Shown here one piece after another: positions 448 to 58,154 of a stretch of 64,000 nt of DNA. Within the stretch, counting starts at the first letter, position 1, and each line of letters opens with the position of its first letter. The DNA lies in the NCBI GenBank assembly GCA_945917765.1, contig CAMEHU010000001.1, forward strand, positions 1 through 64,000, written 5' to 3'. Position numbers and translations under genes: made by a program. Source of the DNA: an uncultured Lachnospiraceae bacterium (GTDB lineage: Bacteria; Bacillota; Clostridia; TANB77; CAG-508). Below the pieces are notes generated by a model. That model was not told the DNA's origin. It did no database searches and saw only the letters and a list, made by a program, of their open reading frames with translations.

Positions 448-656
448 ATAATAATTTATTTTTTTATATTATCATAATTATTCACAATTTTTTCTGTTAT
501 AAACATACTATATAATTATTTCCAAAATTTAACTTTTTACATTATGAATTGTATACTATAATTGGCTTTTTTTCAATACTTATTTGTAATTATTTATAAT
601 TTTGGGAACGGTTCTAAAAATCCAATTTAATAGCTACAAAATTGATAACTTTCTGT

Positions 657-681
657 GCCAAATTGCCCCGTCCCCGTTGGC
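657..681. repeat. REP-like palindrome, family A (copy 1)
   Basis: A 25-base unit starting GCCAAATTGCCCCGTCCCC and ending TTGGC. Near-identical units recur at 3027, 10252, 15424 and 24896. The ends GCCAA and TTGGC are complementary, so the unit can form a small hairpin around a GC-rich centre, which stands out in this AT-rich genome. Here the end TCCGTTGGC is repeated once more up to 690. Confidence 0.85.
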
Positions 682-699
682 TCCGTTGGCTCTAAAAAT

Positions 700-2912: not shown

Positions 2913-3026
2913 ATTATCCCTCCTTTTCTTTGTTTTGATTGTTGGTATTATGTATTTATATATTGCATTATGTTCTTCTTGCATTTCTAATTACAATAAC
3001 CTTCAACTAATTCTAGATAACAAATT

Positions 3027-3051
3027 GCCAAATTGCCCCGTCCCTATTGGC
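3027..3051. repeat. REP-like palindrome, family A (copy 2), overlapping the tsaD stop
   Basis: Same 25-base unit as at 657, with CCCTATTGGC at its end. It overlaps the 3' end of tsaD: read on the minus strand, the unit's own TGCCAATAG supplies the last two codons and the stop codon of tsaD. The insertion or exchange of this repeat therefore seems to have defined the C-terminus of the protein. Confidence 0.8.
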
Positions 3052-4048
3052 ATTCTTCGCCTAATTTTAAATTAGGAATTGCATTTAAATACAAATCTGA
3101 TCTTTTTCCATTTATGTAATTATAATAACCTGCACTTGCTATCATTGCTGCATTGTCTGTGCATAATATTGGTTCTGGATAATATATTTTTAATCCATGT
3201 GTTTTTTCTAATTCGTTAAATTTTTCTCTAATATATGAATTAGCTGAAACACCTCCTGCTAATGCAATTTTGTTAATATTTAGTTGTTCAGCTGCTTTTA
3301 AAACATTATCTAATAATACTTGTGTAACATTTTCTTCAAAACTTGCACATAAATCTGCTTTATTTATATCAGGATTTTTGTGATGTAAGTTTATAATTGC
3401 TGTTTTTATTCCACTAAAACTGAAATCCCAATTATCGAAATGTGTTTTTGGTAACTGAATATTTGGAGTTCCTTCTTTTGCTAACTTATCTATTTTGGGT
3501 CCTCCTGGATATCCTAATCCAACAACTCTTGCAACTTTATCAAATGCTTCTCCTATAGCATCGTCTCTTGTTTTGCCTAATATTTCAAAGTCTTCATAGC
3601 TTTTTATATGTACTAAATGTGTATGTCCTCCTGAAATAACCATGCATAAAAAAGGTGGTTGTAAATCTTTATGTGTTATGTAATTTGCTGCAATATGTCC
3701 TTGAATATGATTTGTTCCAACTAATGGGATATTTAATGTATAACTTAGTGCTTTTGCATATGATACTCCAACTAATAATGCTCCAACTAATCCGGGTCCA
3801 TATGTACATGCGATATGGTCAATGTCTTCAAATGTTACTCCCGCTTCTTTTAGTGCTTGTTTTGTTACTTCTGAAATAGCTTCAACATGGTTTCTAGATG
3901 CTATTTCTGGAACAACACCTCCATATTGTTCATGTATTTTAATTTGAGAATTTATTACGTTAGAAAGTACTTCTCTACCATTTTTTACTACTGCAACAGA
4001 AGTCTCATCACAACTTGATTCAATTCCTAAAGTTAATATATCTTTCAT
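3044..4048 (-). CDS. tsaD: tRNA N6-adenosine threonylcarbamoyltransferase TsaD
   Basis: 334 residues, normal length. The ASKHA-fold signatures are clear: [10 protein letters not shown] at the N-terminus, the metal-binding histidines in [10 protein letters not shown], the glycine-rich VISGGHTHL, and [10 protein letters not shown] followed by CTDNAAMIA. With TsaB and TsaE it transfers the threonylcarbamoyl group to A37 of ANN-decoding tRNAs, and it is normally essential. The final residues (ECQ) and stop codon lie inside a REP-like repeat. The best ribosome-binding site lies unusually far upstream, behind a small hairpin. Confidence 0.97.
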
Positions 4049-10031: not shown

Positions 10032-10211
10032 TGTCTTTTGAGTAGCCCAAATCTAAGAATTATGTAGATTAAAAAAATATATTAATACGCAGTAAGCGCG
10101 CAGTTTGGCGCCCCCACCTATCGTCTTCCAAACAAGCTCCAACGCCAGCAAACGAACGGAGTATTAATGATATTTTTAAATCTACATAATTCTTAGATTT
10201 GGGTGGCTTAC
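10032..10211. repeat. Large hairpin element, copy A (about 170 bp)
   Basis: A left arm from 10042 (GTAGCCCAAATCTAAGAATT) and a right arm ending at 10211 are complementary over about 45 bases. They enclose a GC-rich core containing GCGCAGTTTGGCGC and GCCAGCAAACGAACGGAG. The core is shared with the copy at 50562, while the arm sequences differ between the copies but still match each other. TGTCTTTTGAGTAGC (10032-10046) marks the left end in both. The 94-aa ORF in the track (10069-10353) is an artefact of this element. It could be a miniature mobile element or a structured RNA. Confidence 0.85.
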
Positions 10212-10251
10212 TTGATTTTCGGTAGTTGTCTCCAAAAGCATTCATGGCTTT

Positions 10252-10276
10252 GCCAAATTGCCCCGTCCCCATTGGC
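10252..10276. repeat. REP-like palindrome, family A (copy 3)
   Basis: A perfect copy of the 25-base unit GCCAAATTGCCCCGTCCCC...TTGGC, between hairpin element A and gpr. Confidence 0.85.
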
Positions 10277-10330
10277 ATAAAAAAACCGTATTTGCAAATA
10301 CTATAAAAAAAGAAAGCGAGGTAATTATTT

Positions 10331-11862: not shown

Positions 11863-11929
11863 TAAGAGATGTGTCCCCAGTTGTGCATTTTGCACAGCAG
11901 GGACGCGTCCCCAACTGTGCAATTATATT
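11863..11929. repeat. REP-like palindromes, family B (two units) between mrnC and rbgA
   Basis: GCACAGCAGGGACGCGTCCC continues to CAACTGTGC, preceded by a second partial unit (GATGTGTCCCCAGTTGTGC). The self-complementary centre GGGACGCGTCCC is striking in this AT-rich background. The same family fills the tgt-queA gap at 23640. Confidence 0.85.
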
Positions 11930-15353: not shown

Positions 15354-15423
15354 ACAAACATTATACACTATTTTTAATCAAAAATCCACTCTAACTTTAC
15401 ACTCACTTATAACACCTAGATTA

Positions 15424-15448
15424 GCCAAATTGCCCCGTCCCCATTGGC
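15424..15448. repeat. REP-like palindrome, family A (copy 4)
   Basis: A perfect 25-base unit GCCAAATTGCCCCGTCCCC...TTGGC between divergent genes. A degenerate relative (GCCAAAAAAACTC...CCATTGGC) follows at about 15523-15549, with the same ends and a different centre. Confidence 0.85.
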
Positions 15449-15555
15449 CAGTTTAAATCAAGTTAATTCGAATCAAATTATTATATTAGTGCTGAAAATG
15501 TTGAAATCTAAAGGAAACCCCAGCCAAAAAAACTCATACTCCCATTGGCTTTAAC

Positions 15556-22494: not shown

Positions 22495-24781
<2,287 letters not shown>

Positions 24782-24895
24782 TTTTTTCCTTTCTAGCCAA
24801 TTTTACAAATCATTTACAAATATTAGATTTGAAAATTGGCAAATAATAAAATCATGTCAAAATTTTTAATTCCGATTGGCATACACAGGACAATT

Positions 24896-24920
24896 AGCCA
24901 AATTGCCCCGTCCCCATTGG
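24896..24920. repeat. REP-like palindrome, family A (copy 5)
   Basis: A perfect 25-base unit upstream of queA, followed by two extra CATTGGCAAC ends (to about 24937), as if unit ends had been duplicated. A longer GCCAATTTT...AAAATTGGC inverted repeat precedes it at about 24796-24840. Confidence 0.85.
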
Positions 24921-24960
24921 CAACCCATTGGCAACTCGTTATATTATACTAGAAAATTAA

Positions 24961-37485: not shown

Positions 37486-37673
37486 TTGGGGACGGAGAAA
37501 AATTTTAAATTGTTAAATTGGGGACGGAGAAAATTTTAAATTTTTAAAATTAGGGACAGAAATCGAGACTTTCTAGAAAAGCTTTTTTCTAAAAAAAAGA
37601 GACTTTCAAGACTGTCCCCTAAAGTCTCAAAAGTGAGACTAAAAAAGACCGTCCCGAAAAGTCTCATTTCAAA
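37486..37673. repeat. REP-like cluster, family C, between two convergent genes
   Basis: Two direct copies of AAATTGGGGACGGAGAAAA lie head to tail, followed by a third (TTAGGGACAGAAA) and an inverted block. The inverted block contains GAGACTTTC, CTGTCCCC, AAGTCTCAAAAGTGAGACT and AGACCGTCCC. The inner AGTCTCAAAAGTGAGACT is itself a hairpin. The same sequences recur at 40035-40150, 51740 and 55159. Confidence 0.8.
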
Positions 37674-40035: not shown

Positions 40036-40152
40036 CTTTTGGGACGGTTCTAAAAACTCAAAGTTACATTTATATACGTTGCTATAACATTAAGACCGTC
40101 CCTTCAAGTCTCAAAAGTGAGACAAAAAAAGACCGTCCCCAAAAGTCTCATT
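40036..40152. repeat. REP-like repeats, family C, between convergent genes
   Basis: GGGACGGTTCTAAAAACTC opens the block. An inverted counterpart follows (AAGACCGTCCC), then AAGTCTCAAAAGTGAGAC and AGACCGTCCCCAAAAGTCTCA. The block closely matches the one at 37590-37670, including the small AGTCTCAAAAGTGAGAC hairpin. Confidence 0.8.
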
Positions 40153-50329: not shown

Positions 50330-50849
50330 ATTTTTTACTCCTTTTTTATATTTCTCCTACTTTTTACTATTTTTCCTGCTTTTTTATTTCATACTTTTTG
50401 ATTATATATCTAGAGTTGTAACTAATATTTTCATTAGTTTATCTATTTATTACTACATTATTTTTACTCACTCTATTATAACACAAAAATGATTAATATC
50501 ATATACTTTGCAAGTATTTTTTATGTTTACTAGTTATAGTTTAACACTTTTTGTCTTTTGAGTAGCTGGAATCATAGAATTATGTAGCGTTCAGAAATAT
50601 ATTAATACGCAGTGGAGTGCGCAGTTTGGCGCTCCTACCTTATGTCTTTATCTCAAATCTTAGCGCCAGTAAACGAACGGAGTATTAATCATATTTCTGA
50701 ACACTACATAATTCTATGATTCCAGTGGGTTATTTCATAAAAAAACTGTAACGTTTACTAAGCAAAGTATTACATTACTCATATACTTTTTTAACATAGG
50801 TCATCATATTTCCTTAATAAATATCTGAAAAATACCTAAAAAATGTTTC
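50330..50849. other. Intergenic region carrying hairpin element B
   Basis: These 520 bases contain no gene. The centre is the large hairpin element (50552-50732). The flanks are AT-rich; the likely promoter of the 426-aa gene is not obvious. Confidence 0.6.
50552..50732. repeat. Large hairpin element, copy B (about 170 bp)
   Basis: The left arm GTAGCTGGAATCATAGAATT (from 50562) matches a right arm ending near 50732 over about 45 bases. The enclosed core shares with copy A the blocks ATTAATACGCAGT, GCGCAGTTTGGCGC and AAACGAACGGAGTATTAAT. Inside, GTTT-GGCGC can pair with GCGCCAGTAAAC, leaving a variable 30-base loop containing ACCT and GTCTT. Arms differ from copy A outside AGAATTATGTAG, but each copy's two arms agree. 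Confidence 0.85.
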
Positions 50850-51738: not shown

Positions 51739-51768
51739 GGAAAAGACCGTCCCCAAAGTCTTACACAA
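51739..51768. repeat. REP-like fragment, family C, at the 3' end of the SPOCS/LysM gene
   Basis: AAAGACCGTCCCCAAAGTCTT overlaps the stop codon region of the SPOCS/LysM gene. Two GCCAATGG-type ends precede it. Confidence 0.65.
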
Positions 51769-53290
51769 ACTTTGGGATAAATAATTGCTGTCCAACGCTT
51801 AATCTGTTTTCATCTTCTATTCCATTCACTGATGTGATTGCATTTATTGTGCTTTTAAATTTTTTAGCAATATTCCATAATGTATCACCTGGTTTAACAA
51901 AATATACGACTATGCTGTATATATTTTCGTCTTCATTTTCTAAAATAGCTAAATTATCAACAACTTTTATTTCAATCATTTTTGAAATGTCTGAAATCAC
52001 ATTTAAATCTACATTTGCTTCAATACTACCATCTCCAGCTTCTGAAAATTGTTTTGTTGTTATTTCAATGTTTGTGTTTATATTTGAGTTGCTTGATGCA
52101 CCTGGGCAGTCTAAGTTACAGCTAAATGGTATTGTTTGTGTTCTTAAATCTAATCTGTTAGTTAATCCTGAGATATATAAGATTTTCACTTCAAGTTCTC
52201 CATCATAAATGATTTTATCATTATAAATATTCTGTTTTATAATTTTAGGAATTATTTCAGAATTGCAAATTTTTGAATTTTGTAATTCAGGAATAACTAT
52301 TTTTTCCGTTAGAGAGGTTTTGTTGTTTAAAATCTGTTTATCTTGCATAACAGTAATGTTTTTTTGGCTTATATCAAGATTTTCTGTTGGACTATATAAA
52401 TCTTGTATTATATTTAATTCTTTTTTCTCAAAAACATTACAAGTTATTTCTATTTCGACTTCTATGTATATTGAATGTTCTTCAACACTATTTGGTTTTA
52501 ATAACATATTTTTTATTTCATAACTTACATTACATAAACTGTCATCAGATACAGATGGCATATCAACAAATCCCATAACCGGTATCTGCCAATTTAGTTC
52601 TTTTATTCTATTGTCATCTGTTAAATAAACTAAATTTACTACCATATCTGATTTAGCTAAAACCTTATTATAACTTGTTTTTGTTTCTTTATTAATAATG
52701 TTAAGATTTACTTTCAAAATTTCTGCTAAATTATCAGTATTTTCCATTGTCATTGTATCTTTTGCATATACTTTTGTAATTCCTGTTCCAACCAATGAAT
52801 CTATTATTGCTGATGTGTTTAGAATTTGAATGTCTTCCCTGTTTTCTATATCTTTTATAAATTCAATATTTTCGTTTGAATATACTGTAATGTCAATATC
52901 TATATTTGTTTTTATATTAACTTTTCTGCCGTTTAGTATTTTACATTCAATGTTATTTAAGTTTATAATACTTTCCATATTCATATTTGGATTTGAATTT
53001 TCCATATCTATTACTTTAGTAAAATCAATTACAGTATTAATTCCCCTTACAGTGCTGTTTTCGTCATCTGCTAGGTACATTATATATACTTGTACTCCAC
53101 CATCTATTCTGATTTTTCCATCTAATATTTCTTTTTTATAAATACACACTGTTCCATTAGTGTTTATTGTGCTTAATATATCTGGTTTTATATCTGGAAT
53201 TATAACATCACCTTCAGCTATTATGTTTTCTTTAGCTTTTCCAATTATTTGATTAACACATAAGTTTTCTTTTAATGTTTCTATAGCCAT
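51761..53290 (-). CDS. SPOCS (DUF3794) and LysM domain protein, SipL-like
   Basis: 509 residues. The N-terminal part has the SPOCS-type pattern (IIAEGDVIIPDIKPDILSTINTNGTVCIYKKEILDGKIRIDGGVQVYIMYL). A second SPOCS-like domain follows (ILYISGLTNRLDLRTQTIPF), and a C-terminal LysM motif YFVKPGDTLWNIAKKFKSTINAI ends it. This is the domain order of SipL, which binds the coat-base ATPase SpoIVA in C. difficile, and of related coat morphogenetic proteins. It probably acts at the forespore surface in the mother cell. The ATG follows GGAGGTATAAAA. Confidence 0.88.
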   Translation of the reverse strand: MAIETLKENLCVNQIIGKAKENIIAEGDVIIPDIKPDILSTINTNGTVCIYKKEILDGKIRIDGGVQVYIMYLADDENSTVRGINTVIDFTKVIDMENSNPNMNMESIINLNNIECKILNGRKVNIKTNIDIDITVYSNENIEFIKDIENREDIQILNTSAIIDSLVGTGITKVYAKDTMTMENTDNLAEILKVNLNIINKETKTSYNKVLAKSDMVVNLVYLTDDNRIKELNWQIPVMGFVDMPSVSDDSLCNVSYEIKNMLLKPNSVEEHSIYIEVEIEITCNVFEKKELNIIQDLYSPTENLDISQKNITVMQDKQILNNKTSLTEKIVIPELQNSKICNSEIIPKIIKQNIYNDKIIYDGELEVKILYISGLTNRLDLRTQTIPFSCNLDCPGASSNSNINTNIEITTKQFSEAGDGSIEANVDLNVISDISKMIEIKVVDNLAILENEDENIYSIVVYFVKPGDTLWNIAKKFKSTINAITSVNGIEDENRLSVGQQLFIPKFV

Positions 53291-53482: not shown

Positions 53483-53755
53483 TGTCTTTTGAGTTTTAAA
53501 CAAATTTTTCTTTTGGTTTTTGATTAAATATTTTTCTTTTGTGTTTTTTTATTTATCTTTTGATTTCCAAATCACTTTATCTTTTGTTTCTTTAAATTAT
53601 TTTATCATTTGAAATTCGAATAAATTTATCATTTGAAACTTTGCATTTTTTCATTTGATATTCACATAAGTTTATCATTTGATTTTTACATATATTTCAT
53701 CATTTGATATTTTAAATATTTCATCATTTGAACCTCGAATAATTTTATCTTTTGA
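53483..53755 (-). repeat. Degenerate 24-bp tandem repeat array downstream of veg
   Basis: On the minus strand about twelve units follow one another, each starting TCAAATGATAAA or TCAAAAGATAAA and about 24 bases long (22-26). They begin four bases after the veg stop codon and reach nearly to the terminator. Stop codons in every frame exclude an extended peptide. The last unit contains ACTCAAAAGACA, the outer end of the large hairpin elements. Function unknown. Confidence 0.8.
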
Positions 53756-54362: not shown

Positions 54363-55160
54363 TTGAAAAGGATAAAAAAAGGTGATATAGTTGGAAGATT
54401 ATCTTATGGAAAAGATATAATTTTCGTTGTTGATAGAATTATAAAACTAAATAATAACAATCAAATAGCAATATTAAAGGGCTTAACTATGAGAATTAAA
54501 GCTGATAGTGATATAACCGATTTAGAAATAATTGATAAAAGAATTGTAAAATCTAGTGAGAAAAAAATTGAGGATAGAATTTTGAATCATTTAAGTAAAT
54601 ATACAAAACGACAACGAAAATCTTATAATTTTGGTAAAATATTGCATTTAGATGGTGATAGTAGATATTCACAAAAATCCACTAGATACTATAGAGATAT
54701 GGGTATTAACGCTATTGTTAAAAACATTTCGGAAACAAGACAACCATTGGTAGTAAAAGGTCTGCTTAGTAAGTATAGACCTGATATTTTGGTGATTACA
54801 GGGCATGATGGAATGATTAAAAGAGGTACTGGTTTTAATGATATTTATAATTATAGACATTCTGCATATTTCGTAAAAACTGTTATTAATGCTAGACAAT
54901 GGGAGAATCACTCGAATAATTTAGCTATTTTTGCAGGTGCATGTCAAAGCTATTATGAAGCTCTTATCCAAGCAGGAGCAAATTTTGCTTCATCACCTGC
55001 TAGAATCTTAATAGATTTTATTGATCCATTAATAGTTGCTGAAAATATTGCTATTGCTGATAGAAATAATTTTGTTTCTATTAAGAATTTTGAAAACGAA
55101 TTAAGAGATGGTCAAAAAGGTATTAGTGGAATTGGGAGTTTTGGGAAGAAAAATGAATGA
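54363..55160 (+). CDS. yabG: Sporulation-specific protease YabG
   Basis: 265 residues. FGKILHLDGDSRYSQKSTRYYRDMGI, VITGHDGMIKR, FAGACQSYYEALIQAGANFASSPARILI and IDPLIVAENIA are the conserved blocks of YabG, which processes spore coat proteins. The start is a TTG at 54363, ten bases after GGAG; the nearby ATG is in another frame. A sigma-K-like promoter lies upstream. The stop codon overlaps the start of a large palindrome. Confidence 0.95.
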   Translation: MKRIKKGDIVGRLSYGKDIIFVVDRIIKLNNNNQIAILKGLTMRIKADSDITDLEIIDKRIVKSSEKKIEDRILNHLSKYTKRQRKSYNFGKILHLDGDSRYSQKSTRYYRDMGINAIVKNISETRQPLVVKGLLSKYRPDILVITGHDGMIKRGTGFNDIYNYRHSAYFVKTVINARQWENHSNNLAIFAGACQSYYEALIQAGANFASSPARILIDFIDPLIVAENIAIADRNNFVSIKNFENELRDGQKGISGIGSFGKKNE

Positions 55161-55255
55161 GCAATTTTTGGATGGTCTTTTTGAGACTTTTTGGGCGGTC
55201 TTTTGAGACTCAAAAGACCGCCCAAAGAGTCTCAAAAAGACCTCCCAAATTGCTC
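55159..55255. repeat. 97-bp palindrome between convergent yabG and KAP genes (family C)
   Basis: GAGCAATTT opens and AAATTGCTC closes an almost perfect palindrome. Inside are GGTCTTTTTGAGACT and GGGCGGTCTTTTGAGACT with their complements. It fills the whole gap between the two stop codons and can act as a terminator for both. The units TTTGAGACT and GGTCTTTT tie it to the REP-like family C. Confidence 0.9.
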
Positions 55256-55259
55256 ACTT

Positions 55260-58154
55260 TTAATTAGCTTTATAAAACTCTTTTTCCTCATCAGTTATCT
55301 TAGTTAAAAACAATCTTGTATTTCTAAAATATCTAGTACAATCTAATGCTGCTTTTTTTATTTTATCACTTTCTGATTTATGGAAATTTGAGTAAATTAT
55401 TTCATTGAAATTTCTTCTAAATTCATAGAAATATCCTCTGTCAAATTTGTTTAATAAATCATATATACCTAAAATATACTCCTCTTCAGCACCTTCAACT
55501 AAGGCTTTTTCAATAATTTTCATTACATCAACTGAATTTAATTCCTCTTGTTTTATAGAACATAGTTCAACTAAATTTTCTAATAACGTATAGTTTCCTT
55601 TTATTAATTCAGCATTTTCAACAGCTTTTTTGTATTCTTCTGAATCAAAATTTTCATCTGGTGTATTTTCTTCTTCAGCCATTGAAATATCATCTACATC
55701 GCATTCTATTACATCTGTTAATTTGTAATTAGATAATTTTTCTTCAATTTTCAAGCAATCATCTATAGAATTAACATCTGATAAAATTTGATTAATAACT
55801 TCAGACATTCTATAAACATCACCATTATCTAAACATTTAGCCATAAAAGCATATGCTTTATCATAATCTAAATTATCTAAACCTTTAATATTTTGATTTA
55901 ATTCATATACTTTACTTATTCTTGTGAAATTATCATCTAATTCTTGAATAACTGCATTTGGTTCTGTAGCTAAACTAATGTTGTTTACTAAGAATTTTAC
56001 ATATTCAGAAATATTTCCACCTTCTTCATAAAATGGATCACTATTTTCTTTCAAGAACTCAAAAGATTTATCATAATTTTCTTTTGAAATACTTTCACTA
56101 ATTCTTCTAATTAATACATTCATTATATTAGCAGGAATTTCAATTTCTAAATTGCTAAATAGATTTAATGCATTGTCTGGATAATAATTATAATTATCTG
56201 CAACAATTTCTAAATACTTAGTATACTCTGATTCAGAAATATAGTCTTTATTTGCGTTAATCAATGTATTTAAATTTTCAAAGTATTCTTTATCAGAAGG
56301 ATTGTTTTTATATACTTCTAATAAGTTGACAAAATTATTTGTAATAAATTCCTTCTTATCTTGTTTATTATCAAATTCCTCAGTTAATTCTAATATTTCT
56401 TGACTTGTTAATTCAGTAAGATTTTCTTCTCCTAAAATATACGAATTAATATTTTTTCCTTTAAATAATTTTTCAGATTTTATTTTAGTTGCATACATTA
56501 ATGTAGGCATATTTTCAATTTGATAATTTCTAGTTTGTCTTAAGAAATACACAAGAGGTCTACTTTTATTTGTAAAGAATGGTTTTAAATCATCATCAAT
56601 ATCATTCCATGCATTTCGTAAATCATCTGGCTCCATGCAATAATATTTTGTAATATCATCTAAATAATCGAAATCTATAAATAAAGTATTATAGAATTTT
56701 TCGAAATCCGCTTGTAGAACAGAAATCTTAGCTAATTGACATTCAAAATCCTTGCTATTTAAAATTTTATCATCAATTTTTCCGCTTTCTATTCTTTTGG
56801 CAATTAATAATTTATTATGAATATAATTATTAATTAGTTTTTTAGCATGTCTTGGTGTAACAACATTTCTATAAACTAAAACATTTCTTATAGTTTTTTC
56901 AAATGTAGCCAAATCACTGTATTCTTCAATAAAATCAGAAGCTTCTTGTTCAACTAAATTAACTGCATAATCTTTAATATCTGTGTTTGAAAAATGTGGC
57001 ACATCAAATTTAAATTGAAATACCTTATCTAAAATTCTTTCTAATTTTAGAGGTCGGTAATTTGCACCATTTTTCATTTGATTTCTAACTTTAATTGCTT
57101 TTTCTAAAATCTTGTCATCAATTGAAACTAAAATAATGCAATTAATATATTCGCTGCAATGCTTAATATCATCAAGAGTTTTTAGCATTTTAGCAACAGT
57201 TAGTTTATCAATATCTTCAATAATAATTATATTTTTTCTTAATGAATCTATAATTTGTGAATTAATAATTTGTTTGTTAATTATTGTTGAATTTTGAGCA
57301 ATATTATTCTGCTTAATATCCATTATTTGAGCATCATTATTTATATTTAAACTTGTTCCTTTAATATTATTTTCACTATTTTTCTTTTCTGCTACAGATT
57401 TTTTAGTTGCAATCATTAAAGTTTGCACAATGTATGCAATTGCAGTTAAGCCAAATGCGAAAATCATAATCATTAAGAAGTTTTCACGATAATTTAAATA
57501 AGTATTCTCAACAAAGAAAACATCATTACTATAAATAGATTTATTCCCCATATATTCCATGAAAATAAAAATTAAAGTTGTAATTAAAAAACAAATTAGA
57601 AATGTTAAAACGAATTTTACAACACTAAAAATCCCTTTAACTGCTGATTTTCTTTGGTCCTTTAAATCTTCTTTTTTATCTTCTTCTATATATGCATCAC
57701 TATTATAATAATCATCAATTAAATTTTGTTTTTCTGTTTCTGAATCCACACTTTTTTGTGCATTTGCATCACTTGAAATAGCTGTAGATTGAACATTATT
57801 GGCAATGTCTGCATTATTTAAAACAGCATTATTGTTGATATTGGCAACACATTGAACGCTTTGTACACAATTCTCATCTAATATTTGTTTTAATGTAGTT
57901 TCATTTTTCCATATATTAATTTTTTTAACATTATATTCTTCAGGCAAATTTTCATATTTCTCAGCAACCATATTAATTATAGAAGATTTACCAATTCCAC
58001 TTTTTCCATTTACAGATATTGCAAATGGTGGCTTTGTAGTGTCTATAATTGATATTATGTTATTAACTACATCTTTGGCTCCAAGTTTATCTTGGTTGAT
58101 TGATGTGAGTTCTTCATCTTTAATAAAATATTTTTTTATTATTTCATCACTCAT
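55260..58154 (-). CDS. KAP family P-loop ATPase with inserted membrane segments
   Basis: 964 residues. Walker A SVNGKSGIGKSS (about 47-58) and Walker B NIIIIEDIDKL (about 310-320) are separated by an Asn-rich spacer and two membrane helices (about 175-203 and 225-250). This insertion is the hallmark of KAP NTPases (Kidins220, PifA). The C-terminal 550 residues are helical, repeat-like and acidic, without a known domain. Bacterial KAP proteins are linked to phage exclusion and membrane-bound complexes. The ATG follows GAAGGGATG. No obvious partner gene is on the same strand. Confidence 0.88.
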   Translation of the reverse strand: MSDEIIKKYFIKDEELTSINQDKLGAKDVVNNIISIIDTTKPPFAISVNGKSGIGKSSIINMVAEKYENLPEEYNVKKINIWKNETTLKQILDENCVQSVQCVANINNNAVLNNADIANNVQSTAISSDANAQKSVDSETEKQNLIDDYYNSDAYIEEDKKEDLKDQRKSAVKGIFSVVKFVLTFLICFLITTLIFIFMEYMGNKSIYSNDVFFVENTYLNYRENFLMIMIFAFGLTAIAYIVQTLMIATKKSVAEKKNSENNIKGTSLNINNDAQIMDIKQNNIAQNSTIINKQIINSQIIDSLRKNIIIIEDIDKLTVAKMLKTLDDIKHCSEYINCIILVSIDDKILEKAIKVRNQMKNGANYRPLKLERILDKVFQFKFDVPHFSNTDIKDYAVNLVEQEASDFIEEYSDLATFEKTIRNVLVYRNVVTPRHAKKLINNYIHNKLLIAKRIESGKIDDKILNSKDFECQLAKISVLQADFEKFYNTLFIDFDYLDDITKYYCMEPDDLRNAWNDIDDDLKPFFTNKSRPLVYFLRQTRNYQIENMPTLMYATKIKSEKLFKGKNINSYILGEENLTELTSQEILELTEEFDNKQDKKEFITNNFVNLLEVYKNNPSDKEYFENLNTLINANKDYISESEYTKYLEIVADNYNYYPDNALNLFSNLEIEIPANIMNVLIRRISESISKENYDKSFEFLKENSDPFYEEGGNISEYVKFLVNNISLATEPNAVIQELDDNFTRISKVYELNQNIKGLDNLDYDKAYAFMAKCLDNGDVYRMSEVINQILSDVNSIDDCLKIEEKLSNYKLTDVIECDVDDISMAEEENTPDENFDSEEYKKAVENAELIKGNYTLLENLVELCSIKQEELNSVDVMKIIEKALVEGAEEEYILGIYDLLNKFDRGYFYEFRRNFNEIIYSNFHKSESDKIKKAALDCTRYFRNTRLFLTKITDEEKEFYKAN

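What the first reader, a model, noticed from the sequence alone, without database searches (positions are those of the whole stretch)
50552..50732. Hairpin element copy B: multi-helix core suggests RNA rather than a simple inverted repeat
Within the core, GTTTGGCGC can pair with GCGCCAGTAAAC, leaving a bulge, while ACGAACGGAG stays unpaired and conserved. A loop with conserved ACCT and GTCTT is enclosed. Conserved single-stranded pieces between helices are more typical of a functional RNA or a recombinase-binding hairpin than of a terminator.
Basis: partly seen in the sequence, partly recalled or inferred. Interest (0 to 1): 0.7.

Follow-up and report, generated by a model that had tools for sequence, protein, structure and literature searches.

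The report
Mobile DNA hairpin with conserved tip
The reported hairpin is one of more than 30 copies, in this gut bacterium's genome, of a small mobile DNA element that has no genes; its long arms keep matching each other by two-sided changes that look like arm-to-arm copying, while an elaborately folded tip is conserved in several genera and has no known job.

Summary
Copy B is the middle of a 220-bp element (50533-50752) with degenerate terminal inverted repeats and a perfect 8-bp target duplication, GTTTACTA. It is a MITE (miniature gene-less transposon). Its ends match IS66-family transposons of the same bacterial family. The own genome holds at least 33 copies. Covariance models find relatives in most species of the genus and in at least five other genera of the family; none was seen in other families sampled.

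The multi-helix core is supported: the inner helix (P2) covaries across genera, and non-standard internal loops recur. ACGAACGGAG is not all unpaired.

RNA is not shown. The long arms covary massively (98.7% paired cells), but G.U is no commoner than A.C (10 vs 7 of 1,707 cells), and 133 of 228 two-sided changes are transversions. That fits template switching between DNA arms better than selection on an RNA helix. Copies lie antisense to flanking co-directional genes 44:11.

The same tip sits in IS66-type MITEs, REP-like palindromes and other hairpin frames, so it behaves as a module. Its function is unknown.

The parts
50525..50532 (.). left target-site duplication GTTTACTA
   Evidence: identical to 50753-50760
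50533..50752 (+). whole mobile element, copy B (220 bp)
   Evidence: ends GTTATAG.../...CTGTAAC inside a perfect 8-bp duplication; family ends and duplications
50533..50552 (+). left terminal inverted repeat, degenerate (GTTATAGTTTAACACTTTTT; family form GTTACWGTTTAAYACTTTTG)
50560..50566 (+). left foot motif GAGTAGC (GTAGAGTAG in other copies)
   Evidence: conserved at the base of the stem across species
50566..50608 (+). P1 left arm
   Evidence: complementary to 50682-50725; covaries in all copies
50609..50681 (+). conserved core at the hairpin tip
   Evidence: alignments A1, A2, A3
50612..50618 (+). P2 5' side GT-GGA-GT
   Evidence: covaries across genera: GTTCC/GGAAC, GTCCC/GGGAC, GTAGC/GCTAC, GTATC/GATAC, GTGGC/GCCAC
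50673..50678 (+). P2 3' side AC-GA-AC
   Evidence: same as P2 5' side
50619..50624 (+). conserved GCGCAG segment
   Evidence: near-invariant in all classes
50624..50632 (+).
   Evidence: near-invariant, so not testable by covariation
50663..50674 (+). P3 3' side GCGCCAGTAAAC with a 2-3 nt bulge
   Evidence: related CCAGYAA or ACAGYAA in other genera
50682..50725 (+). P1 right arm
50739..50752 (+). right terminal inverted repeat, degenerate (AAAAAAACTGTAAC)
50753..50760 (.). right target-site duplication GTTTACTA
10032..10216 (+). copy A; arms, foot and core present, no recognisable terminal repeats
10075..10175 (+). core of copy A
   Evidence: R2 match

Best explanation
Copy B is a non-autonomous DNA transposon (MITE) whose ends are those of IS66-family elements. 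It moved as double-stranded DNA by a DDE transposase acting in trans, leaving an 8-bp duplication; this step is shown by its footprint, while the enzyme is inferred from matching ends. Between the ends lies a long palindrome with a conserved, structured tip. The arms are kept complementary mainly by template switching during replication: one arm is copied onto the other, so both sides change in one event (inferred from the pattern of changes). The tip is kept by selection and is shared by several unrelated hairpin frames (shown). It most likely works at the DNA level, as a folded single strand at the tip of the palindrome, possibly bound by a protein or acting as the fold-back that primes arm copying (inferred, weak). 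An RNA role is the second choice.
For: Ends chosen without looking at flanks: 19 of 33 elements have a perfect 8-bp duplication and none do at offsets of 1-3 bases; copy B has one too. The end pattern is enriched 228 vs 18 hits in G014, though not in the own genome, 32 vs 29. IS66 transposases (NF033517, PF03050) of the same bacterial family lie between GTTAC ends, one pair being GTTACTATTCACAGCT on both sides of L226, and three others have perfect 8-bp duplications. The MITE ends GTTACAATTCACAG and GTTACTATTCACAGCC are nearly the same. IS256 and IS1595 transposases are absent. The element is absent within 1.5 kb of the neighbouring yunB orthologue in nine relatives. Arms: 1,675 of 1,707 cells are Watson-Crick, G.U 10, A.C 7; pair states seen in a single copy are mostly two-sided (7, 9, 16, 22 in four groups, against 11 one-sided G.T and 12 A.C in all); 133 of 228 two-sided changes are transversions. 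In L063 the right end is exactly the reverse complement of its own left end. Core: P2 covaries across genera while mismatched loops persist. The same core sits in different frames.
Against: No intact IS66 transposase was found in the own genome or in G014 (only a 129-residue remnant). Many copies, copy A included, show no IS66-type ends, so another route of movement or decay of the ends must be assumed. Two-sided changes were inferred between paralogous copies, not along known ancestors; inheritance from perfectly paired master copies explains part of them. One-sided mismatches of other kinds also occur among unique states (30 in the four groups, 19 of them in G000). No experiment shows that the core folds. 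The strand bias against sense insertion could also point to a transcript.
Confidence: 0.72

Rival explanations
1. The hairpin is a functional RNA: it is transcribed and its helices are kept by selection for the RNA fold.
For: The core has conserved single-stranded segments and non-standard motifs (GNA/GGA loop, tandem G.A, a kink-turn-like TTG-GA-GC/GC-GA-CAG-CAA in two genera) and P2 covaries across genera. There is strong strand bias relative to genes, 44:11.
Against: No G.U excess in the arms, many transversion pairs, ordinary folding energy, no Rfam match. No own promoter is evident.
Confidence: 0.25
2. REP/BIME-type element moved by a RAYT (Y1 transposase), which recognises a GTAG foot and a hairpin in single-stranded DNA.
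For: GTAGAGTAG at the 5' foot of many copies. The own genome has four RAYT genes. Some core copies lie within GGGACG-ended palindromes.
Against: The four RAYTs in the own genome are flanked by other repeats and none of the 23 RAYT loci scanned has this core. G002 and G013, with about 31 and 20 copies, have no RAYT. The 8-bp duplications are not expected of Y1 transposition.
Confidence: 0.08
3. The core is an element in its own right that inserts at the centre of existing palindromes, so that the arms belong to the target.
For: The core is always at the dyad, inside IS66-type, REP-like, GGGACACC and GGAGAAA/CGGCAACA frames. One frame also carries an unrelated tip module.
Against: No frame was seen both filled and empty with the same arms; the nearest core-free relative in G231 looks like a deletion. 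Chimera L071, with arms of two subfamilies joined at the core, shows that recombination at the core can also reshuffle frames.
Confidence: 0.2
4. Rho-independent terminator or ordinary intergenic hairpin.
For: Intergenic, near gene ends.
Against: No terminator-like site, mobile with target duplications, mostly between co-directional genes and antisense to them.
Confidence: 0.02

Closest known systems
IS66-family transposons (single-transposase type) and MITEs derived from insertion sequences
   Same: GTTAC-type ends, 8-bp duplications, no coding capacity, dispersed intergenic copies
   Different: A long palindrome with a conserved structured tip that is shared with unrelated frames; no MITE of this design was found in the papers searched
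REP/REPIN/BIME elements with RAYT transposases; GTAG- and CGTC-tagged palindromes (PMC3733652)
   Same: Dispersed intergenic hairpins; a GTAG foot; REP-like ends in some frames
   Different: Arms of 40-99 bp rather than 5-13 bp stems, 8-bp duplications, no linked RAYT
Hairpins maintained by template switching (PMC8794818)
   Same: Two-sided changes, arms corrected, tip retained
   Different: Described there for RNA genes; here the evidence is in a non-coding mobile element and lacks the G.U signature

Membership tests
MITE of the IS66 family | Short non-coding element with terminal inverted repeats | tested here: met
   161-230 bp in the main family, ends GTTAC.../...GTAAC; no long ORF over any main-family copy
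MITE of the IS66 family | 8-bp target-site duplication | tested here: met
   19 of 33 perfect, 0 at shifted offsets; copy B perfect
MITE of the IS66 family | Ends shared with an autonomous IS66 element | tested here: met
   L226 GTTACTATTCACAGCT vs MITE GTTACTATTCACAGCC and GTTACAATTCACAG, in related genomes
MITE of the IS66 family | Autonomous partner in the same genome | tested here: not met
   No IS66 match in G000; a remnant only in G014; both are draft metagenome assemblies, so absence is weak
MITE of the IS66 family | Movement by the IS66 transposase in trans | not testable with these tools
   needs an experiment
REP/RAYT element | Linked RAYT gene flanked by the element | tested here: not met
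REP/RAYT element | GTAG tag at the hairpin foot | tested here: met
   GTAGAGTAG in many copies, GAGTAG in copy B
Structured RNA family | Match to a described RNA family | tested here: not met
Structured RNA family | Helices maintained through G.U intermediates on one strand | tested here: not met
   (arms)
Structured RNA family | Transcription | not testable with these tools
   no expression data
Rho-independent terminator | GC-rich stem followed by a T run | tested here: not met

The most novel reading that the evidence does not exclude
The conserved tip is a palindrome-making device: as single-stranded DNA it folds back and primes copying of one flank onto the other, so it turns whatever flanks it into matching arms. 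This would let it persist and pass between unrelated mobile hairpins as a parasite of hairpins.
Probability: 0.12. Interest if true: 0.85.

Novelty: new variant of a known kind. Interest (0 to 1): 0.55.

Why it matters
Compensatory base changes are normally read as proof of a functional RNA. Here is a large natural set, about 100 copies examined from eight genomes of one genus with more in other genera, in which long helices covary almost perfectly without the G.U signature, so covariation alone would mislead an RNA search. It makes the rate and direction of template switching between palindrome arms measurable in closely related copies. It also shows a structured tip shared by several unrelated mobile hairpins, whose function can be asked directly.

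Tried and rejected
Rfam at curated and loose thresholds: nothing. Viral contigs with an exact core pattern, plasmids and phages: nothing. Exact-pattern hits in Accumulibacter, Paraeggerthella, Halobacillus and a deltaproteobacterium: the first two were inspected and lack the surrounding core, the other two were not looked at. IS256 and IS1595 as parents: absent. RAYT as mover: not linked. The empty-site search matched only the neighbouring gene, because the intergenic DNA is not conserved; absence near the orthologues is therefore indirect. Folding energy of the core was uninformative. The GTTTGGCGC/GCGCCAGTAAAC and GCGC/GCGC helices could not be separated by covariation.

Full report
What is there. 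The window holds two copies, at 10032-10216 and 50552-50738. The own genome (1.82 Mb, 77 contigs) has 30 copies by covariance model R1 and at least three of a longer class. R1 finds copies in 13 of 16 genomes of the genus, up to 51 in one, and divergent members in four other genera of the family; R2 adds a fifth (g33) and no family other than the own one among 391 genomes of the class. One rich genome, G014, appears to correspond to CAMPBM01, a metagenome assembly called uncultured Lachnospiraceae.

It is a transposon. Copy B runs from 50533 to 50752, between degenerate inverted ends and a perfect 8-bp duplication GTTTACTA. In 33 family elements whose ends were chosen without looking at the flanks, 19 have a perfect 8-bp duplication, while none do when the right flank is shifted by one to three bases. 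The ends match those of IS66-family elements of the same bacterial family: L226 (1,952 bp, GTTACTATTCACAGCT at both ends) against MITE ends GTTACTATTCACAGCC and GTTACAATTCACAG. L222, L224 and L225 have GTTA or GTTAC ends and perfect 8-bp duplications, and the transposases are IS66 by two libraries, two of the four scoring slightly under NCBIfam's cut-off. IS256 and IS1595 are absent. No intact IS66 gene was found in the own genome, and many older copies, copy A included, have no recognisable ends.

The arms. Across 90 distinct copies 98.7% of arm cells are paired and 17 of 19 arm pairs change on both sides in some copy. Yet G.U pairs are 10 and A.C pairs 7 of 1,707 cells; a longer-arm count gives 186 vs 175, or 72 vs 104 among nonredundant copies. 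An RNA helix would favour G.U on the transcribed strand. Among two-sided changes 133 of 228 are transversions, which cannot pass through G.U. Pair states seen in one copy only are often two-sided even among copies that are nearly identical. In L063 the right end is the exact reverse complement of its own left end. This is the pattern expected of template switching between arms, known to correct stems while keeping the loop (PMC8794818). Inheritance from perfectly paired master copies may explain part of it.

The core. The internal mismatches (GNA/GGA and tandem G.A) persist next to arms that are otherwise perfectly matched, and P2 takes different Watson-Crick forms in different genera: GTTCC/GGAAC, GTCCC/GGGAC, GTAGC/GCTAC, GTATC/GATAC, GTGGC/GCCAC. 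Two genera have a kink-turn-like TTG-GA-GC / GC-GA-CAG-CAA (recognised from general knowledge, not tested). Energy-based folding is not unusual for either strand. So a structured core is conserved, but which polymer folds is not shown.

Frames. The same core is found within IS66-type ends, within 88-99-bp palindromes ending in GGGACGG, next to REP-like repeats in G154 and G065, and in G008 palindromes with GGGACACCTCC. A chimera, L071, joins arms of two subfamilies at the core. The core is therefore a module that changes frames, by recombination or by insertion.

Strand bias. Between co-directional genes the core's written strand is antisense to both neighbours in 44 of 55 cases (p = 9e-6; 18 of 19 in the own genome; no bias in G008). 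Gene calls there are simple ORFs. The cause may be transcription or replication direction; I could not separate them.

Verdict. A mobile hairpin of the IS66-MITE kind with an unusual conserved tip.

Noticed in passing
own genome, L237, L251, L256, L258; window 650-682, 3020-3052, 10245-10277, 15417-15449, 24890-24922, 11868-11928, 23642-23764, 37608-37668, 40092-40152: Four RAYT (Y1 transposase) genes, each flanked on both sides by a different GTCCC-type repeat; most of the window's other short repeats belong to these four sets.
   Followed up: partly
L060 648-838; L094 4787-5184: A second, unrelated structured tip (TTAGCAGTACACTACTTGAGGGTGCACATAG...CCTCAGTGGAGAGGCGCAAGTGTGTACGCTTAG) in hairpins of G014; the L060 frame GGAGAAA/TTTCTCTCGGCAACA is close to that of core copies L024 and L161.
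   Followed up: no
L022, L025, L091, L163: In four copies from three species the tip GCGC-AGTTTG-GCGC is replaced by GCGC-TAGYAAAR-GCGC, which resembles the 3' segment GCGCCAGTAAACG of the same element.
   Followed up: no
L116 2666-2888; L196 118-390; L198 288-570; L201 213-501; L203 1358-1631: Longer MITEs with the same ends and a related core carrying a long extra hairpin.
   Followed up: partly
window 55136-55280: A 72-nt inverted repeat with a 1-nt spacer, 76% complementary, overlapping the end of the ORF at 55260-58154.
   Followed up: no
window 53599-53755: Degenerate direct repeats of ATTT-ATCATTTGA units upstream of the ORF at 51761-53290.
   Followed up: no
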